Positions 13,608 through 21,887 of a DNA stretch of 64,000 bases are shown here, piece by piece. How positions within the stretch are numbered: position 1 is the first letter of the stretch; each line of letters opens with the position of its first letter. A program made the position numbers and the translations under genes. The stretch covers positions 20,868-84,867 of the forward strand of contig CACHGH010000003.1 of the NCBI GenBank assembly GCA_902579215.1, given 5' to 3'. The DNA is from an uncultured Pelagibacteraceae bacterium (GTDB lineage: Bacteria; Pseudomonadota; Alphaproteobacteria; Pelagibacterales; Pelagibacteraceae). The notes below the pieces were generated by a model. That model was not told the DNA's origin. It searched no databases and saw only the letters and a list, made by a program, of their open reading frames with translations.

Positions 13608-14678
13608 ATGAAGAGAAAGATAACAATATTGGGAATTGAGTCTAGTTGTGACGAAACAGCCGTATCTATAATTGAAGAAAACAACAATAAAACAAAAATT
13701 TTATCAAATATTGTTTCAAGTCAAGTAGATGTTCATAAAGAATTTGGTGGCGTGGTGCCAGAATTGGCAGCAAGATCTCATATCGAAAAAATTGATTTGA
13801 TAGCAAAAAAAGCAATTGCAGATAGCAATGTTAAAATTGAAGATATAGATGCTGTTGCAGCGACTGCTGGTCCAGGTCTTATTGTTTGTTTATCCGTTGG
13901 TCTAAATTTTGGAAAAACTATTGCATGTTCTTTAAATAAACCTTTTATTGCAGTTAATCATCTTGAGGGGCACGCTTTAAGTCCTAAACTTAATTCAAAA
14001 ATAAACTATCCATATTTATTACTTTTAATTTCTGGAGGCCACACTCAATTTTTAAATGTTAAAGGTTTGGGAAACTACAAAAGATTGGGAACCACAATTG
14101 ATGATGCGCTTGGCGAAGCTTTTGATAAAACGGCAAAATTAATTGGAATAGAATTTCCTGGAGGTCCCAAAATTGAAGAATACGCAAAACTGGGAGATAA
14201 AAATAAATTTAACTTGCCAAAACCGATTATAAATAAAGGTGGATGTAATTTATCATTTGCAGGACTTAAAACAGCTGTTCTGAAAATTTCAAAAAAAATT
14301 AAAACAAAAAAAGAAAAATATGATCTTGCAGCAAGTTTTCAAAAAACTGTTGAAGAAATATTGCTAAAAAAAACTAAAATTGCATTTAATGAATTTAAAA
14401 AAAATAACCTAAGTAAAAAAAATATTTTTGTAATTGCTGGTGGAGTAGCATCTAATAAACAAATCAGGAAAAAATTAGAAAAATTTAGCTTAGAAGAAAA
14501 ATTTGAACCAATTTTTCCTCCTTTAAATCTTTGTAGTGACAACGCGGCAATGATAGCTATGGTTGGTTTAGAAAAATTCAAAAAAAAAAATTTCAACAAA
14601 TTAGATTATCCTGCAAAACCAAGATGGGCGCTTGATGAAAAAGCAATTTTTTTAAAAGGTGCTGGTGTAAAATTATAA
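13608..14678 (+). CDS. tsaD: tRNA N6-adenosine threonylcarbamoyltransferase
   Basis: ILGIESSCDETAVSII; NHLEGHALSP; LISGGHTQFL. Confidence 0.97.
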   Translation: MKRKITILGIESSCDETAVSIIEENNNKTKILSNIVSSQVDVHKEFGGVVPELAARSHIEKIDLIAKKAIADSNVKIEDIDAVAATAGPGLIVCLSVGLNFGKTIACSLNKPFIAVNHLEGHALSPKLNSKINYPYLLLLISGGHTQFLNVKGLGNYKRLGTTIDDALGEAFDKTAKLIGIEFPGGPKIEEYAKLGDKNKFNLPKPIINKGGCNLSFAGLKTAVLKISKKIKTKKEKYDLAASFQKTVEEILLKKTKIAFNEFKKNNLSKKNIFVIAGGVASNKQIRKKLEKFSLEEKFEPIFPPLNLCSDNAAMIAMVGLEKFKKKNFNKLDYPAKPRWALDEKAIFLKGAGVKL

Positions 14679-14801
14679 TGCAATACTGGTTACTCAAACC
14701 AAAGCTTACCATACATTATTAAGACTCTACCGACTCCCACTAACCTTTAAATTAACTTTACGATTAAAAATGTTGATTAGGGCTAATTATAATCAGTAAA
14801 T

Positions 14802-14841
14802 GTATAGCACATCGTATAGCACGACTTTTTAAATTGTGCTA
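14802..14841. repeat. Two direct GTATAGCAC copies (14802-14810 and 14814-14822) plus inverted GTGCTA (14836-14841) just upstream of the methyltransferase start
   Basis: Read directly: ...aatGTATAGCACatcGTATAGCACgactttttaaattGTGCTAaat... Confidence 0.75.
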
Positions 14842-14852
14842 AATTATTTTAA

Positions 14853-17534
14853 ATGTCTATTGTTGAAAATATTGAAACTAAATTAAAAAAAGTATTAGAT
14901 AAAAATGACAAAGATAATTTTATTTATAATTTTTTAGAAGCCTACAATCAACCAAAATCTACTATTAAAAGAATTAAAGAAGGTGACTATAATTTATCTA
15001 AAAAAAAAGGTGAAATAATTTGGAAAAAAAAAATATACTTTTATACAACACAACATGATGAAGATATTCATGATATTATAGATGAAATATCTAAAAATAA
15101 AATTATAGAAAAAAATAGGATAAGATTTCTTATTGTTACAGACTTTAAAGATATTTTATCCGTAGATACAAAAACAAAGTCAACTCTAGATATTAAATTA
15201 AAAGAATTATTAAAAAATGTTGATTTTTTCTTACCATTATGTGGTTTAGAAAAAGCAGAAGATATTATTGAAAATCAAGCAGATATAAAAGCTGCTTATA
15301 AAATGGGAAAATTATACGATTCCCTAATTAAAGATAATATGAATTTTCTTGAAGGTAGTAGAGATAGGCATGGTTTAAACATTTTTTTTTCAAGATTGTT
15401 ATTCTGCTTGTTTGCTGAGGATGCATATATTTTTGAAAAGCGCTTGTTTACAAAATCAATTATCTCTCATACTTCAGAAGACGGTAGTGATTTAGATTCA
15501 TATCTTGAAAAATTATTTAAAGTATTAAAAACAAATAATAGATCTAATCTTCCAAATTATTTTAAATCATTCCCATATGTTAATGGTGGATTATTTAAAA
15601 ATGATTATAAAATTCCTAAAATGTCGTTTGCATCAAGAAAATTGTTAATTGAATGTGGTGATTTAGACTGGAATTCAATTAATCCAGATATTTTTGGATC
15701 TATGATGCAAGCGGTTGTTATTCATGGAGAAAGAAAAGAACTTGGCATGCATTACACGTCATTAACTAATATTTTAAGAGTAATAAAGCCATTATTTTTA
15801 AATGATTTATATGATGCTTTTTATGAGGCTGACAATGATAAAAAAAAATTAAATAAAATATTACGTAAAATTTATAATATTAAAATTTTTGATCCTGCGT
15901 GTGGTTCTGGTAATTTTCTAGTTGTAGCTTTTAAAGAATTATACAGATTAGAAATTGAAATTTTAAAAAAATTAAGAGAAATAGATAATACTGAGTGGCT
16001 AATAACTCAGTCGGGTATAAAGTTATCCCAATTCTATGGGATTGAAGTTGATGATTATGCTCATGAGACGACCAAATTATCTTTATGGATAGCACAACAC
16101 CAAATGCATAATATTTATGAGGATATCCTTAATGAACATAGACCAACGTTACCCTTGTCTGAACCAGGAAATATAATTTGTAAAAATTCGACAGATGTTG
16201 ATTGGTCAAATTTTTGTAAAAATGATCAAGAATCTGAAATTTTTTTAATTGGAAATCCTCCATATTTAGGTCCAAAAAAACAAAAAATCACACATAAAAA
16301 TGATATTAAAAGAGTATTTAATGAAAAAAAAGGAGCTAACATTCTAGATTATATATCTTGTTGGTTTATTTTAGGAGCAAAATATATCTCAAAAAATAAT
16401 GCAAAACTTGCATTTGTTTCAACTACCTCAATTTTTCAGGGAGAACAAATTTCTATTTTATGGCCAAATATGTTTGAACTGGATATAGAAATATTTTTTA
16501 CTTATAAAAGTTTTAATTGGACAAACAATGCAAAAAACAAGGCTGGTGTAGTTTGTACTATAATTGGATTAAAAAAAAAAAATAAAGGTAAAGATATAGA
16601 ACAAAAAAGAATTTTTGAAGAAAATAAAATACATACCGTAAAGTTTATAAATGCATATCTAAATGATGGACCAGATGTTATAGTTTTTAAATCTCGTTCA
16701 TCAATTTCAAATTTACCAAAAATGTCTTTTGGAAATATGCCATTGGATGGGGGAAATTTAATATTATCTCATGATGAAAAAAATGAATTAATAAATGAAA
16801 ATAAAAAGAATGAAAAATTTGTTAAATCTCTTATGGGAGCTGAGGAGTATATTAACGGAAAAAAAAGATATTGTTTATGGATTGAAAAAAAGGATTTAGA
16901 AGAAGCTTTAAACTCAAAATTTATTAAAAATCGAGTAAATAGAGTAAAAAATTTTAGATTATCAAGTAAAGACAAAGGTACTCAAAAATTATCTTCAAGG
17001 CCATATCAATTTAGAGATTTAAATGTTGCGAAAAAAAATAGCATAATAATACCCAGACATACTTCAGAAAAAAGAGAGTTTTTAACTGTTGGTTTTTTGG
17101 ATAAAAGTATAATTATCCCTGACTCAAGCCAGGTAATATATGATCCGCCATTTTATATATTTACAGTTTTATCTTCAAAATTACATTCTGACTGGGCTTC
17201 ATTTGTGGGTGGCACACTTGGGTCAACTCCAAGATATTCAATAATGCTTTGTTATAATACTTTCCCTTTCCCTAATATTAGTCAAGTTGAAAAAAACAAT
17301 TTAGACGAACTGGGTTTTGAGTTAATTGATATAAGAGAAAAGTTTACAGAAAAAACATTAGCAGAATTGTATATGCCAAATAATATGCCTTTTGAGTTAA
17401 AAAAAATTCATACGAAAATTGATAGTTATATAGATAAAATTTATGGAATTAATCCAAGTTTGGATAATATTAAAAAACTATATATACTTTTAAAGTTATA
17501 TAAAAATAATAAAAAAGATAACTTTCTTGTTTAG
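14853..17534 (+). CDS. MmeI-like (Type IIG-related) N6-adenine DNA methyltransferase with degenerate N-terminal nuclease motif
   Basis: FDPACGSGNFLVVAFKELYRLEIEIL (SAM motif I), GNPPYLGPKK (motif IV NPPY), LLFCLFAEDAYIFEKRLF and ELGMHYTSLTNILRVIKPLFL, C-terminal LAELYMPNNMPFELKKIHTKID, collinear with MmeI-type proteins. Confidence 0.9.
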   Translation: MSIVENIETKLKKVLDKNDKDNFIYNFLEAYNQPKSTIKRIKEGDYNLSKKKGEIIWKKKIYFYTTQHDEDIHDIIDEISKNKIIEKNRIRFLIVTDFKDILSVDTKTKSTLDIKLKELLKNVDFFLPLCGLEKAEDIIENQADIKAAYKMGKLYDSLIKDNMNFLEGSRDRHGLNIFFSRLLFCLFAEDAYIFEKRLFTKSIISHTSEDGSDLDSYLEKLFKVLKTNNRSNLPNYFKSFPYVNGGLFKNDYKIPKMSFASRKLLIECGDLDWNSINPDIFGSMMQAVVIHGERKELGMHYTSLTNILRVIKPLFLNDLYDAFYEADNDKKKLNKILRKIYNIKIFDPACGSGNFLVVAFKELYRLEIEILKKLREIDNTEWLITQSGIKLSQFYGIEVDDYAHETTKLSLWIAQHQMHNIYEDILNEHRPTLPLSEPGNIICKNSTDVDWSNFCKNDQESEIFLIGNPPYLGPKKQKITHKNDIKRVFNEKKGANILDYISCWFILGAKYISKNNAKLAFVSTTSIFQGEQISILWPNMFELDIEIFFTYKSFNWTNNAKNKAGVVCTIIGLKKKNKGKDIEQKRIFEENKIHTVKFINAYLNDGPDVIVFKSRSSISNLPKMSFGNMPLDGGNLILSHDEKNELINENKKNEKFVKSLMGAEEYINGKKRYCLWIEKKDLEEALNSKFIKNRVNRVKNFRLSSKDKGTQKLSSRPYQFRDLNVAKKNSIIIPRHTSEKREFLTVGFLDKSIIIPDSSQVIYDPPFYIFTVLSSKLHSDWASFVGGTLGSTPRYSIMLCYNTFPFPNISQVEKNNLDELGFELIDIREKFTEKTLAELYMPNNMPFELKKIHTKIDSYIDKIYGINPSLDNIKKLYILLKLYKNNKKDNFLV

Positions 17535-17537
17535 AAA

Positions 17538-19457
17538 ATGACTAATTTTATAGATGTAGAATATCAGCAAACTGGAAAAAGTCTCCAAACAAACAAATAC
17601 GGTATGAGAGAAATGCAAGCAAGAGCATTTGAAAGTAAAGACTCTCAATATCTTTTGCTAAAAGCTCCTCCTGCCTCAGGAAAGTCAAGAGCATTAATGT
17701 TTTTAGGATTAGACAAACTTTATAATCAAGGACTTAAAAAAGTAATAGTTGCAGTTCCTGAAAAAGTTATTGGTTCCTCATTCGAGAGGGTAAAACTTAC
17801 AGAGAGTGGTTTTTTTGCGGACTGGGATTATAATGAAGATTATAATTTATGTACTCCAGGAGGAGACGATAGAAAGGTAAGGGCTTTTAGAAATTTTATT
17901 GAGGATAAAAAAGAAACAATATTAATCTGTACACATGCAACACTAAGATTTGCGTTCAATCAGTTAAAGATTTCGTCTTTTGATGATACTTTACTAGCTA
18001 TTGACGAGTTTCATCATGTTTCTGCAGCAATAGAAAATAGATTAGGTGAGGTTTTAAATACAGTAATGTCAAAATCAAATGCGCATGTTATAGCAATGAC
18101 AGGCTCGTATTTTAGAGGAGACAGTTTGCCAGTTTTACTTCCTGAGGACGAAATCAAATTTACAAAAGTTACATACAACTATTATGAACAATTAAATGGT
18201 TATAAATTTTTAAAGTCACTTGGAATAGGATATCATTTTTACCAAGGAAGATACTTGTCAGCTATATCAAAAGTTCTTGATACTGATCAAAAAACAATAC
18301 TTCATATTCCAAATGTAAATGCAGGAGAATCTACAAAAGATAAGCATAAGGAGGTTGATACTATTTTGGATATTATTGGAACTGTTGAAAAACAAGATTC
18401 AAAAACAGGAGTTATATTTGTCAAAAGAAAATTGGACGGTAAAATTATAAAAGTTGCAGATTTAGTTAACGATAATCAAAAAGATAGGGATAAAATTGTA
18501 AACTATCTAAGATCTCTAAAGAATGTTGATGATATAGATATAATCATAGCATTGGGCATGGCAAAAGAAGGTTTTGATTGGCCATATTGTGAACACGCTC
18601 TTACAGTTGGATATAGAGGATCTTTAACAGAAATTATTCAAATTATAGGAAGAGCCACTAGAGATAGTTCAAATAAAACTCACTCTCAATTTACAAACTT
18701 AATCGCTCAACCCGATGTAGCTGACAGTGAAGTTAAACTATCGGTAAATAATATGTTAAAAGCAATAACAGCATCCCTATTAATGGAACAAGTATTGGCA
18801 CCACATGTAAATTTTAAATCTAAACACAAGGGAGAAATTCATGAGCCTGGGACCATTTCAGTAGGAGGTTTTAAAGAACCAAGTTCAAAAAAAGTCAAAC
18901 AAATAATTGAAAGTGATCTCAACGACTTAAAAGCTTCAATTCTTCAAGATGACAATATGCTTAAAGCCATGCCAGGAAATGTTGAACCAGAAGTAATGAA
19001 CCAAGTTTTGATTCCAAAAATAATTCAAGAAAAATATCCTGAGTTAACAAAAGATGAGGTGGAAGAAATTCGACAACATGTTTTAGTAGACTCAACAATT
19101 AAAAATGGAGAGATTAAGCATGTCGGTGATAAAAGATTTGTTAGAATGGCTGATAAATTTATTAATATTGACGATCTTCATATAGATCTTATTGATAAAA
19201 TAAATCCATTTCAAAAAGCTTTTGAAGTATTGTCAAAAAGCATAAATAAAAGTTTATTAAAAGTTATAGGTGATACGATTGAGTCTCAAAAAATTTTGAT
19301 GACAGAAGAAGAGGCTGTTATTTTATATAAAGAAAAGATTGGTAAATTCATTAATAAATATGGTAGAGAACCAAAAATAAGTTCGGTAGATCCTCTTGAA
19401 AGAAGAATGGCCGAAGCAATAATTTTTCTAAAAAATAAAAAACGTCAAAAAAGTTAA
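17538..19457 (+). CDS. SF2 (DEAD/DEAH-like) helicase of RM-like cassette
   Basis: Walker A KAPPASGKSRAL, Walker B AIDEFHHVSA, AMTGSYFRGD (motif III-like), EIIQIIGRATRDS (motif VI). Confidence 0.9.
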   Translation: MTNFIDVEYQQTGKSLQTNKYGMREMQARAFESKDSQYLLLKAPPASGKSRALMFLGLDKLYNQGLKKVIVAVPEKVIGSSFERVKLTESGFFADWDYNEDYNLCTPGGDDRKVRAFRNFIEDKKETILICTHATLRFAFNQLKISSFDDTLLAIDEFHHVSAAIENRLGEVLNTVMSKSNAHVIAMTGSYFRGDSLPVLLPEDEIKFTKVTYNYYEQLNGYKFLKSLGIGYHFYQGRYLSAISKVLDTDQKTILHIPNVNAGESTKDKHKEVDTILDIIGTVEKQDSKTGVIFVKRKLDGKIIKVADLVNDNQKDRDKIVNYLRSLKNVDDIDIIIALGMAKEGFDWPYCEHALTVGYRGSLTEIIQIIGRATRDSSNKTHSQFTNLIAQPDVADSEVKLSVNNMLKAITASLLMEQVLAPHVNFKSKHKGEIHEPGTISVGGFKEPSSKKVKQIIESDLNDLKASILQDDNMLKAMPGNVEPEVMNQVLIPKIIQEKYPELTKDEVEEIRQHVLVDSTIKNGEIKHVGDKRFVRMADKFINIDDLHIDLIDKINPFQKAFEVLSKSINKSLLKVIGDTIESQKILMTEEEAVILYKEKIGKFINKYGREPKISSVDPLERRMAEAIIFLKNKKRQKS

Positions 19458-19460
19458 TAT

Positions 19461-20651
19461 ATGATCAATTTTAAACAAGAACTAAGTAAAATCTTAGAAG
19501 AAGATCCCTTAGGTATATTAAAAATACAAGTTGCTCAAACTATAAGCCCAGATCAAAGGTTAAAAGATTCTTTTGAAGAAATAAATAAATTTGTAGACGA
19601 ATTTGGTATTGAGCCAAAAAAGTCTAATAATATTAATGAAAGGAAATTATTTAGTAGACTTTTTGAATTGAGGAAAGATTTTGAAAAAGCAAGCATTCTA
19701 AAAAATTTTGATAAACATAACTTATTAAAAAATGTCAAAGAGCCTAAAACAGTAGATGATGTTTTAGAAAATGATTATCTTGGATTATTAAGTGATGAAA
19801 ACGAAGATATATTCAACATAAGAAATATTCCAAAAATTAAATCAAAAACAGACTTTGTTGCTAGAAGAAAACCATGTAAAAATTTTCATAAATTTGAAGA
19901 TCAATTCAAGATAGTTCAGAAGGAAATTACATCTGGAAAAAGAAAGATTTTAGTTTTTAAAGATAATCATTGCAAAGAAGGTGGATATTATATTTTAGAT
20001 GGTATTTTACTTTTTTTAGAAAAAATTGAAGGAAAAAACATTAAAAGATTTAATGATAAAAGTCAGGGAACAAGAAAGAGAGATGATCCAAGAACAAGAT
20101 GTATTTTTGAAAATGGAATGGAATCAAATATGTACTTACGGTCACTTCAAAAAGAACTATATAATAACGGAAGTACAGTAATTAGAAGTAACGATGAATC
20201 TTTAAAAGAATTTGATGAAAACTTAGGTGGAATCAATAAAGAAGACAAACTATCAGGCCATATATATGTATTATCATCTTTAAGTAATAAACCCGAAATA
20301 CAGGTTATTAAAGACTTATATAAAATTGGTTACTGCACTACATCCGTTGAAGAAAGAACAAAAGGTGCTGAAAATGATCCCACTTATTTAATGTCACCTG
20401 TTAAAATTGTTTCTAGCTACAAAGTTTTTAATTTAAATCCACAAAAATTTGAAAATTTAATACATACTTTTTTTCAAGAAAAATGTTTAAACATAAAAAT
20501 AGCAGATAGAAATGGAAAGAATATTCAACCTAAAGAATGGTATGTTATTCCTATTAAAATTATTGAAAGAGTTATTCAACTAATAATTAGTGGTGAAATT
20601 ATCAAATTTAAATATGACGCAAAAAATGAAGAACTTGTAAAATTTGATTAA
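19461..20651 (+). CDS. GIY-YIG (T5orf172/MUG113-like) nuclease family protein
   Basis: C-terminal GHIYVLSSLSNKPEIQVIKDLYKIGYCTTSVEERTKGAENDPTYL...PQKFENLIHTFFQEK with GIY/YIG-like, Arg and Glu positions. Confidence 0.83.
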   Translation: MINFKQELSKILEEDPLGILKIQVAQTISPDQRLKDSFEEINKFVDEFGIEPKKSNNINERKLFSRLFELRKDFEKASILKNFDKHNLLKNVKEPKTVDDVLENDYLGLLSDENEDIFNIRNIPKIKSKTDFVARRKPCKNFHKFEDQFKIVQKEITSGKRKILVFKDNHCKEGGYYILDGILLFLEKIEGKNIKRFNDKSQGTRKRDDPRTRCIFENGMESNMYLRSLQKELYNNGSTVIRSNDESLKEFDENLGGINKEDKLSGHIYVLSSLSNKPEIQVIKDLYKIGYCTTSVEERTKGAENDPTYLMSPVKIVSSYKVFNLNPQKFENLIHTFFQEKCLNIKIADRNGKNIQPKEWYVIPIKIIERVIQLIISGEIIKFKYDAKNEELVKFD

Positions 20652-20810
20652 GCAAATTTAGACCATATTTTTTTATTAGATAAAATTAGTGATTTACGAA
20701 TTAATTATATTTGGAGTAATTCCCATTTATATTTATAAAAAAATTAAAAAAATCATTATAAAAACATATTTTAGTCCTAATAAAACCAACTAGTTATGTT
20801 CTAAAATATA

Positions 20811-21413
20811 ATGCGATTGTTTTGGTTTATTTCTCTCCATTTAATTGTATTTTTAATATTAATCTCTTCATATTCTTACGCAGAGGATAAAATATTTACC
20901 TGTAAACCAATTATGGCAAGCGTTCAGTTAAAAAATGGAGAATATTATTTTGAAACAGTTGATGATGAAAAAATTCCTCTGATAAATAAATTAACAGTAT
21001 CACAATTTTTAATTGATAATAACGATGTATTTTACAAAAACAATAAAAATAGAAAATTTGAACAACTTATTTCTATAAATCACTTTGACAGTTTAGATTT
21101 AAACAATGAACAGTCTAATATTTTTAAAAAAATTTGGGATGTTTTTTTAGAATGGGATCAAATGTTAAATCTTAAAAATTTTAAAACTTTTATTTATCCT
21201 TACAAATCATTTGATGATAATGGTGATTATTATCTATCTATGAAGCGAATAAGTATACATGAAGAAAATTACAGAACATCTGAGATAACTGTACCTGTAC
21301 CTTTTGCAGAAGATAAGCCATCCTATTTCATTGAAAGATCTTGTGAGGGAGAAAATGAAAAGGAACCAATTCAGTATTTCTTCGAAAAATCAATTAATAG
21401 AAAACTTTCTTAA
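20811..21413 (+). CDS. Hypothetical exported protein
   Basis: Signal peptide-like N-terminus MRLFWFISLHLIVFLILISSYSYAED; no family recognised. Confidence 0.6.
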   Translation: MRLFWFISLHLIVFLILISSYSYAEDKIFTCKPIMASVQLKNGEYYFETVDDEKIPLINKLTVSQFLIDNNDVFYKNNKNRKFEQLISINHFDSLDLNNEQSNIFKKIWDVFLEWDQMLNLKNFKTFIYPYKSFDDNGDYYLSMKRISIHEENYRTSEITVPVPFAEDKPSYFIERSCEGENEKEPIQYFFEKSINRKLS

Positions 21414-21467
21414 GTTAAATTAAAAAAAATATTGTTTAATTATTAAAAAAAATTTATCCTATAAAAT

Positions 21468-21887
21468 ATGGCAAGATCATATTTTCTACTTAAATCTGAA
21501 CCTAATGTATGGTCTATATATCAACAAAAAAAAGCAGGATTAAAAGGTGTGTCTTGGGATGGAGTTAGAAACTATCAAGCTGCAAATAATTTAAAAAAGA
21601 TGAAAAAAGGTGATCTTTGTTTTTTTTATCACTCAAATATAGGAAAAGAAATTGTTGGTATTGTAGAAATAGTAAAGCCAGCGTTTTTAGATATAACAGA
21701 TAAAAAAAAAAAATTTGTCGCTGTACAAGTTAAGTTTAAAAAAATGTTAAATAAACCTGTTCCACTTGTAAATATTAAAAAAAATAAAGATTTAATTCAT
21801 TTATCACTAGTAAAACAAAGCAGGTTATCAGTAATTTCCATAGATTCTAAAAGCTGGAAAATCATAAACAAGATGGGTAATATCTAA
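21468..21887 (+). CDS. EVE domain-containing protein
   Basis: [15 protein letters not shown]...[44 protein letters not shown]. Confidence 0.93.

What the first reader, a model, noticed from the sequence alone, without database searches (positions are those of the whole stretch)
14853..20651. Three-gene RM-like cassette: MmeI-type methyltransferase + SF2 helicase + GIY-YIG nuclease inserted between tsaD and the EVE gene
Seen: three same-strand ORFs separated by 3 nt each (stop 17534/start 17538; stop 19457/start 19461). Protein 1 has MmeI-like methylase motifs, protein 2 has SF2 motifs (APPASGKS, DEFHH, QIIGRATRDS), and protein 3 ends in a T5orf172-type GIY-YIG domain. Established: in canonical MmeI/Type IIG enzymes, methylation and cleavage sit in one polypeptide and no helicase is needed. 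Inference: restriction has been handed to a separate helicase-nuclease pair. That would be a non-canonical restriction/defence architecture, with the methylase providing self-marking and recognition. No integrase, transposase or tRNA gene flanks it. I cannot establish novelty without a search.
Basis: partly seen in the sequence, partly recalled or inferred. Interest (0 to 1): 0.85.

Follow-up and report, generated by a model that had tools for sequence, protein, structure and literature searches.

The report
Mobile DnmA-YeeB-YeeC restriction cassette in Pelagibacter
A marine bacterium of the SAR11 group carries a known but poorly understood three-gene DNA-defence system (a DNA-marking enzyme plus a separate motor and cutter), and here it sits inside a previously unremarked kind of small mobile cassette that repeatedly inserts restriction genes at the start of one particular housekeeping gene.

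Summary
In detail: three intact, same-strand genes lie at 14853-20651, an MmeI-family m6A methyltransferase without its nuclease motif, an SF2 helicase and a GIY-YIG (T5orf172) protein. The architecture is not new. It is the DnmA(YeeA)-YeeB-YeeC cluster of Bacillus subtilis, described as a possible 'Type I-like' RM system; deleting dnmA or yeeB in Vibrio crassostreae raises sensitivity to some phages (reported in PMC9973331). All GTDB loci with at least 7 kb upstream of the helicase also carry the methylase. In 34 of 65 loci an extra gene block (AlbA_2/Schlafen, RhuM, Fic, AAA_13...) sits between methylase and helicase, never between helicase and nuclease. This parallels PrrC embedded in Type I operons and supports a split, Type I/ISP-like machine. 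Following the flanks gave the more novel result: the cassette lies in a mobile element inserted in the 5' end of the EVE gene. The first 7 EVE codons remain after tsaD, followed by a conserved ~125-nt element end (leave-one-out E=3e-35). The same end marks insertions at EVE in about 18 other Pelagibacterales genomes, with different cargo, often RM genes. One element is 99% identical between two families. No recombinase is encoded. Cassette: new member of a known kind.

The parts
13608..14678 (+). tsaD, core gene upstream of the insertion
   Evidence: adjacent to EVE in empty-site relatives
14678..14698 (+). Remnant of the original EVE gene start (ATGCAATACTGGTTACTCAAA = MQYWLLK), overlapping the tsaD stop as in empty-site relatives
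14699..14825 (+). Conserved left end of the mobile element (CCA...AAGACTCTACCGACTCCCACTAACC...TATAGCACATCGTATAGCACG)
   Evidence: leave-one-out nhmmer 14687-14825 E=3.2e-35; alignments
14853..17534 (+). DnmA/YeeA-type MmeI-family m6A DNA methyltransferase, endonuclease motif lost
17538..19457 (+). YeeB-type SF2 helicase/translocase
19461..20651 (+). YeeC-type protein with C-terminal GIY-YIG (T5orf172) nuclease domain
20811..21413 (+). 200-aa unknown protein with a hydrophobic N-terminus, inside the same insertion, rare in the genus (2 of 101); relation to the RM genes unclear
21414..21467 (+). Right junction, variant type shared with two other occupied genomes (G095, G499): ...AAATTTATCCTATAAAAT before the EVE start
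21468..21887 (+). EVE gene, target of the insertion, now with a different N-terminus ([12 protein letters not shown] instead of MxYWLLKSEP)

Best explanation
The three genes form a DnmA-YeeB-YeeC restriction-modification system that works like a split Type I / Type ISP enzyme. DnmA binds a short asymmetric site through its MmeI-type TRD and methylates an adenine, marking host DNA. When the site is unmethylated, as on phage DNA, DnmA acts as the recognition subunit that recruits YeeB, which uses ATP to move along DNA and delivers the GIY-YIG nuclease YeeC to cut. Shown by sequence: intact methylase motifs, lost DnmA nuclease motif, intact motor and GIY-YIG motifs, fixed M-H-N order across phyla, and no gene ever between H and N. 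Inferred: physical complex, translocation, cleavage, phage restriction. In this genome the system is cargo of a mobile element inserted at the start of the EVE gene.
For: DnmA-type: MmeI E80-M81-K82 aligns with Y64-T65-T66 (the residues are essential in MmeI, PMC4833311). None of 39 homologues has ExK in register. Methylase motifs DPACGSGNF and NPPY are invariant or nearly so. YeeB Walker A, DEFH and motif VI are invariant in 49 homologues at 71% mean column identity, and its best fold match is the Type ISP enzyme LlaBIII, with HsdR of EcoR124I also listed (other SF2 helicases score equally). YeeC has invariant Y269, K288-I289-G290, R299 and E331. Among the 80 GTDB helicase loci, every one with at least 7 kb upstream has the methylase on the same strand. 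34 of 65 loci carry cargo of types known from Type I operons between M and H, none between H and N (PrrC in Type IC). A 46-aa module is shared by the YeeB C-terminus and YeeC N-terminus (probability 93%). dN/dS is 0.07-0.25 (H) and 0.19-0.44 (N) against Pelagibacter homologues. V. crassostreae deletions raise sensitivity to some phages (PMC9973331).
Against: B. subtilis dnmA, yeeB and yeeC deletions change neither plaquing of three phages nor (dnmA) plasmid transformation, and its motif is not avoided by phages. GIY-YIG cleavage by this family has not been shown to my knowledge. The YeeC model found no solved homologue. dS is near saturation, so dN/dS is rough.
Confidence: 0.62

Rival explanations
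1. Orphan-methylase relic: the methylase is kept for gene regulation or as passive baggage and YeeB/YeeC no longer restrict, as proposed for B. subtilis.
For: Published B. subtilis data.
Against: All three frames open with catalytic residues intact; helicase dN/dS about 0.07 against the two closest homologues; carried in a mobile element whose other copies often carry RM genes; rare in the genus, as expected for a defence gene rather than a regulator.
Confidence: 0.2
2. Methylase-linked defence without direct cleavage of phage DNA at a distance: YeeB-YeeC halts phage replication (BREX-like exclusion) or triggers cell dormancy on sensing unmethylated sites.
For: No cleavage data exist; PADLOC shows weak similarity of the methylase to DrmMI and PglX and of the helicase to PbeA; frequent co-cargo of toxin-like genes between M and H.
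Against: GIY-YIG residues are conserved across phyla, which argues for nuclease use; no other BREX/DISARM genes are present.
Confidence: 0.12
3. Type IV-like: YeeB-YeeC cut DNA bearing foreign modification, independently of the methylase.
For: The helicase-nuclease pair is never separated while the methylase is often distanced by cargo.
Against: The methylase is present in every locus with enough upstream DNA.
Confidence: 0.05

Closest known systems
DnmA(YeeA)-YeeB-YeeC of Bacillus subtilis and homologues in Vibrio crassostreae
   Same: Same three families in the same order, nuclease-less MmeI-type methylase first (published descriptions; 80 loci).
   Different: The Pelagibacter copy lies in an EVE-targeted mobile element; target site unknown; no cargo between M and H.
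Type IIL (MmeI)
   Same: Full-length five-domain methylase/TRD relative, 586 bits to MmeI 5HR4.
   Different: No PD-ExK nuclease; separate motor and nuclease genes.
Type ISP RM enzymes (LlaGI, LlaBIII)
   Same: Nuclease + SF2 motor + gamma-type methylase + TRD for an asymmetric site; LlaBIII is the top fold match of YeeB.
   Different: Three proteins instead of one; GIY-YIG instead of Mrr-like nuclease. A true Type ISP enzyme occupies the same EVE site in another Pelagibacter genome.
Type I RM with embedded accessory genes (PrrC in EcoprrI)
   Same: Embedded accessory genes between modification and motor genes in about half of loci.
   Different: No separate HsdS; nuclease is a separate gene.
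Elements integrating in 5' ends of protein genes (islands in dusA, PMC4482086)
   Same: Site-specific insertion at the start of a housekeeping gene.
   Different: No integrase on the EVE elements; 1-7 kb; often RM cargo. Only the abstract of PMC4482086 was seen.

Membership tests
DnmA-YeeB-YeeC cluster | MmeI-family methylase lacking PD-ExK | tested here: met
   alignment (E80/K82 replaced by Y64/T66)
DnmA-YeeB-YeeC cluster | SF2 helicase immediately downstream | tested here: met
DnmA-YeeB-YeeC cluster | T5orf172/GIY-YIG protein as third gene | tested here: met
DnmA-YeeB-YeeC cluster | Direct homology to the B. subtilis proteins | tested here: inconclusive
Type IIL (MmeI) RM | Methylation and cleavage in one polypeptide | tested here: not met
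   nuclease motif absent
Type IIL (MmeI) RM | MmeI domain order with gamma-type m6A methylase and TRD | tested here: met
Type I RM | HsdR with motor and nuclease in one chain, and separate HsdS | tested here: not met
   no HsdS, nuclease on a separate gene
Type ISP RM | Single polypeptide Mrr-helicase-coupler-methylase-TRD | tested here: not met
Type I / Type ISP mode of action | ATP-dependent translocation and cleavage away from the site | not testable with these tools
   needs biochemistry
BREX / DISARM | PglX/PglZ/BrxC or DrmA/B/C set | tested here: not met
   only weak partial matches; no such genes in the island

The most novel reading that the evidence does not exclude
The RM cassette is cargo of a new family of small (about 1-7 kb), recombinase-less mobile cassettes of Pelagibacterales that insert site-specifically after codon 7 of the EVE gene, can stack in tandem, rebuild the EVE start at their right end, move between families, and often carry interchangeable restriction-modification systems. 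This would be a defence-gene capture site mobilised in trans, perhaps by a host tyrosine recombinase or an unknown helper.
Probability: 0.45. Interest if true: 0.75.

Novelty: new member of a known kind. Interest (0 to 1): 0.5.

Why it matters
The three-gene system is widespread yet its mechanism is open: the B. subtilis copy looks dead and the Vibrio copy looks active. An apparently intact, mobile, cargo-free copy from SAR11, and the finding that about half of relatives embed Type I-style accessory genes exactly between methylase and motor, make a split Type I/ISP model testable. The EVE-targeted cassettes would give a concrete route by which the most streamlined and abundant ocean bacteria swap restriction systems without carrying an integrase.

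Tried and rejected
Novel three-gene architecture: rejected, already described. Canonical Type IIG/IIL, as PADLOC labels the methylase: rejected because the nuclease motif is gone. Cleavage-incompetent pseudogenes: rejected, all frames open and constrained. Core locus: rejected, helicase in 3 of 201 genus genomes and tsaD-EVE adjacent in many relatives. Attachment structure in the element end: only a 5-bp TGGTT-N5-AACCA hairpin, not better than column shuffles (52 of 200 as low). Integrase on or specific to the element: none seen; occupied genomes have at most one Phage_integrase gene, also present in genomes without the 18-base insertion signature. Left-end sequence in viral contigs: no exact match. 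YeeC fold search: no meaningful match. A second decayed element end near 20786 was suspected by eye but not supported by the profile. Morgan 2009 could not be read; its claims are taken from PMC7261158 and PMC9973331.

Full report
Observation. Three + strand ORFs, 14853-17534, 17538-19457 and 19461-20651, are intact and 3 nt apart. Protein 1 matches all five MmeI domains, protein 2 DEAD and Helicase_C weakly, protein 3 T5orf172 in its last third. PADLOC calls protein 1 a Type IIG enzyme (E=1e-277) and finds nothing strong for the others. A fourth ORF (20811-21413) in the same interval has no family. The finding is confirmed.

Identity. A literature search by gene names recalled for this domain set led to Bacillus subtilis dnmA(yeeA)-yeeB-yeeC. 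PMC7261158 and PMC9973331 describe DnmA as an MmeI relative without the endonuclease motif, followed by a helicase and a T5orf172 protein; they report the earlier suggestion (Morgan 2009) of a Type I-like RM system, find the same order in many species, find no restriction of plasmid or of three phages in B. subtilis, and cite increased sensitivity to some phages in V. crassostreae dnmA and yeeB deletions. The window copy has the same features: MmeI catalytic E80/K82 are Y64/T66, and 39 homologues lack ExK in register although the domain itself is conserved (46% mean identity to the window copy, more than the TRD's 41%). I infer that this dead nuclease domain may now serve as a docking surface.

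Conservation and co-occurrence. A scan of GTDB genomes with the helicase gave 80 loci from many bacterial phyla and one archaeon; the aligned set, which includes two Pelagibacter genomes from a later search, is 57-81% identical to the window copy over full length. Methylase, helicase and nuclease lie on one strand in the order M-H-N in 65 loci; one more has H-N-M; the rest have too little DNA on the contig. Every locus with 7 kb upstream has the methylase. The set was chosen by helicase similarity, so it says nothing about methylases without a helicase. The helicase is far more conserved (mean column identity 71%) than methylase (55%) or nuclease (48%). Helicase Walker A, DEFH and motif VI, methylase DPACGSGNF and NPPY, and GIY-YIG Y269, KIG288-290, R299, E331 are invariant or nearly so.

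Type I-like anatomy. In 34 of 65 loci there are 0.5-4.9 kb of extra same-strand DNA with genes between M and H; none of the 65 shows a gene between H and N. Among ten of these genes scanned, Pfam finds SLFN_AlbA_2, RhuM, Fic, AAA_13 (the PrrC/RloC type by my knowledge), DUF1016/YhcG and BRO domains. PrrC embedded in a Type IC operon is the classic parallel. Helicase and nuclease therefore behave as one unit, like a split HsdR, and the methylase with its own TRD takes the place of HsdM plus HsdS. YeeB C-terminus and YeeC N-terminus share a 46-residue module (hhalign probability 93%). The YeeB model (pLDDT 76) has Type ISP LlaBIII as best PDB match, but generic SF2 helicases score as well. The YeeC model (pLDDT 87, pTM 0.43) had no useful match. 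Type ISP enzymes need two head-to-head asymmetric sites and cut between them (PMC3874165); I propose the same for this trio. That is inference.

Status in this genome. Against Pelagibacter homologues dN/dS is 0.07-0.25 (H), 0.19-0.44 (N) and 0.33-0.48 (M), with near-saturated dS. The helicase occurs in 3 of 201 genus genomes and 3 of 298 order genomes; in two others examined it is at a different place, not at EVE.

Where it sits. In many relatives the tsaD stop overlaps or abuts the EVE start (MxYWLLKSEPDVW). In the window the tsaD stop is followed by ATGCAATACTGGTTACTCAAA, the first seven EVE codons, then CCA and foreign DNA; EVE resumes at 21468 with another N-terminus. Searching 300 genus genomes for TAYTGGTTANTNAAACCA gave 13 matches in 12 genomes against 0 for the reversed pattern. 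Twelve of the 13 lie at the EVE start and, G062 excepted, are followed by the same ~125-nt sequence around AAGACTCTACCGACTCCCACTAACC (shorter or more diverged in G095 and G074); the thirteenth (G138) is unrelated. A profile built without the window finds it at 14687-14825 with E=3e-35. The 25-mer, with up to 3 mismatches, occurs in 11 of 398 order genomes, including two of another family; reversed control 0. Eight of the nine new ones are again at an EVE start or EVE remnant. In that other family a different gene separates tsaD from EVE, so the target is EVE, not tsaD. The element of G524 and that of G224 (different families) differ at 29 sites over 3.43 kb, while their tsaD flanks are 65% identical and similarity drops at the EVE start codon. 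G066 has two elements in tandem. Right ends share ...GGAGAAACAATTAG-ATGAAGTACTGG; the window, G095 and G499 have another right end. Both ends of the common type carry TRTAGTACGTTGYRTAGTACG-like repeats.

Cargo. Different elements carry EcoRI-type methylase plus GmrSD/HNH, a Type ISP enzyme, C5 methylase (with a weak PD-(D/E)XK match in one of three), an HSDR_N-N6_Mtase protein plus Methylase_S, and a DUF4379 protein; others carry surface or unknown genes. I count DNA methylases in nine occupied genomes including the window (G000, G471, G066, G110, G200, G197, G524, G224, G296), of about 20. No element showed a recognisable recombinase among the genes I read or scanned, and the occupied genomes show at most one Phage_integrase gene. 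Movement in trans is an inference; recombination between conserved ends carried on transferred DNA is an alternative. I found no description in the held papers, but that library is partial.

Verdict. The cassette is a new member of a described but mechanistically open system. Its carrier looks like a recurrent, EVE-targeted, recombinase-less cassette, which I regard as the more surprising result.

Noticed in passing
window 14678-14825 and 21414-21467: The island is a mobile element inserted after codon 7 of the EVE gene; same end in about 18 other Pelagibacterales genomes with varied cargo, tandem copies in G066 (L150 1944 and 7117), no recombinase seen.
   Followed up: partly
L181 1491-4925 and L174 1540-4975 (L174 on the reverse complement): Element 99% identical between two Pelagibacterales families (29 differences in 3.43 kb) while flanks are 65% identical; cargo is an HSDR_N-N6 methylase protein plus a Methylase_S protein with no separate motor gene.
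   Followed up: partly
loci L012-L080, between methylase and helicase: 34 of 65 DnmA-YeeB-YeeC loci carry embedded accessory genes (AlbA_2/Schlafen-HATPase, RhuM, Fic, AAA_13, DUF1016, BRO) between M and H and none between H and N.
   Followed up: partly
L043 2793-4973: 726-aa AAA_13 protein embedded between methylase and helicase, PrrC/RloC-like by family; possible anticodon nuclease guarding a DnmA-type system.
   Followed up: no
window 19296-19436 (YeeB residues 587-633) and 19539-19676 (YeeC residues 27-72): The two neighbouring proteins share a 46-aa module (I.KF....G.EP......ER), suggesting a common partner or past exchange.
   Followed up: partly
tsaD-EVE interval in L120-L131: Many genus genomes without the conserved left end also carry 0.7-3.5 kb of variable genes (often TPR-like or unknown proteins) between tsaD and EVE: a general hypervariable spot.
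   Followed up: partly
L149, L153, L156 (first gene after the element's left end): A conserved 111-aa protein (MQ.ELFDYRRD.LF.SENQIA.Y.D; the L156 copy has no Pfam match) precedes the RM genes in three elements; possibly a regulator.
   Followed up: no
window 20811-21413: 200-aa protein with a hydrophobic N-terminus in the same insertion; homologue (49%) in one other of 101 genus genomes.
   Followed up: partly
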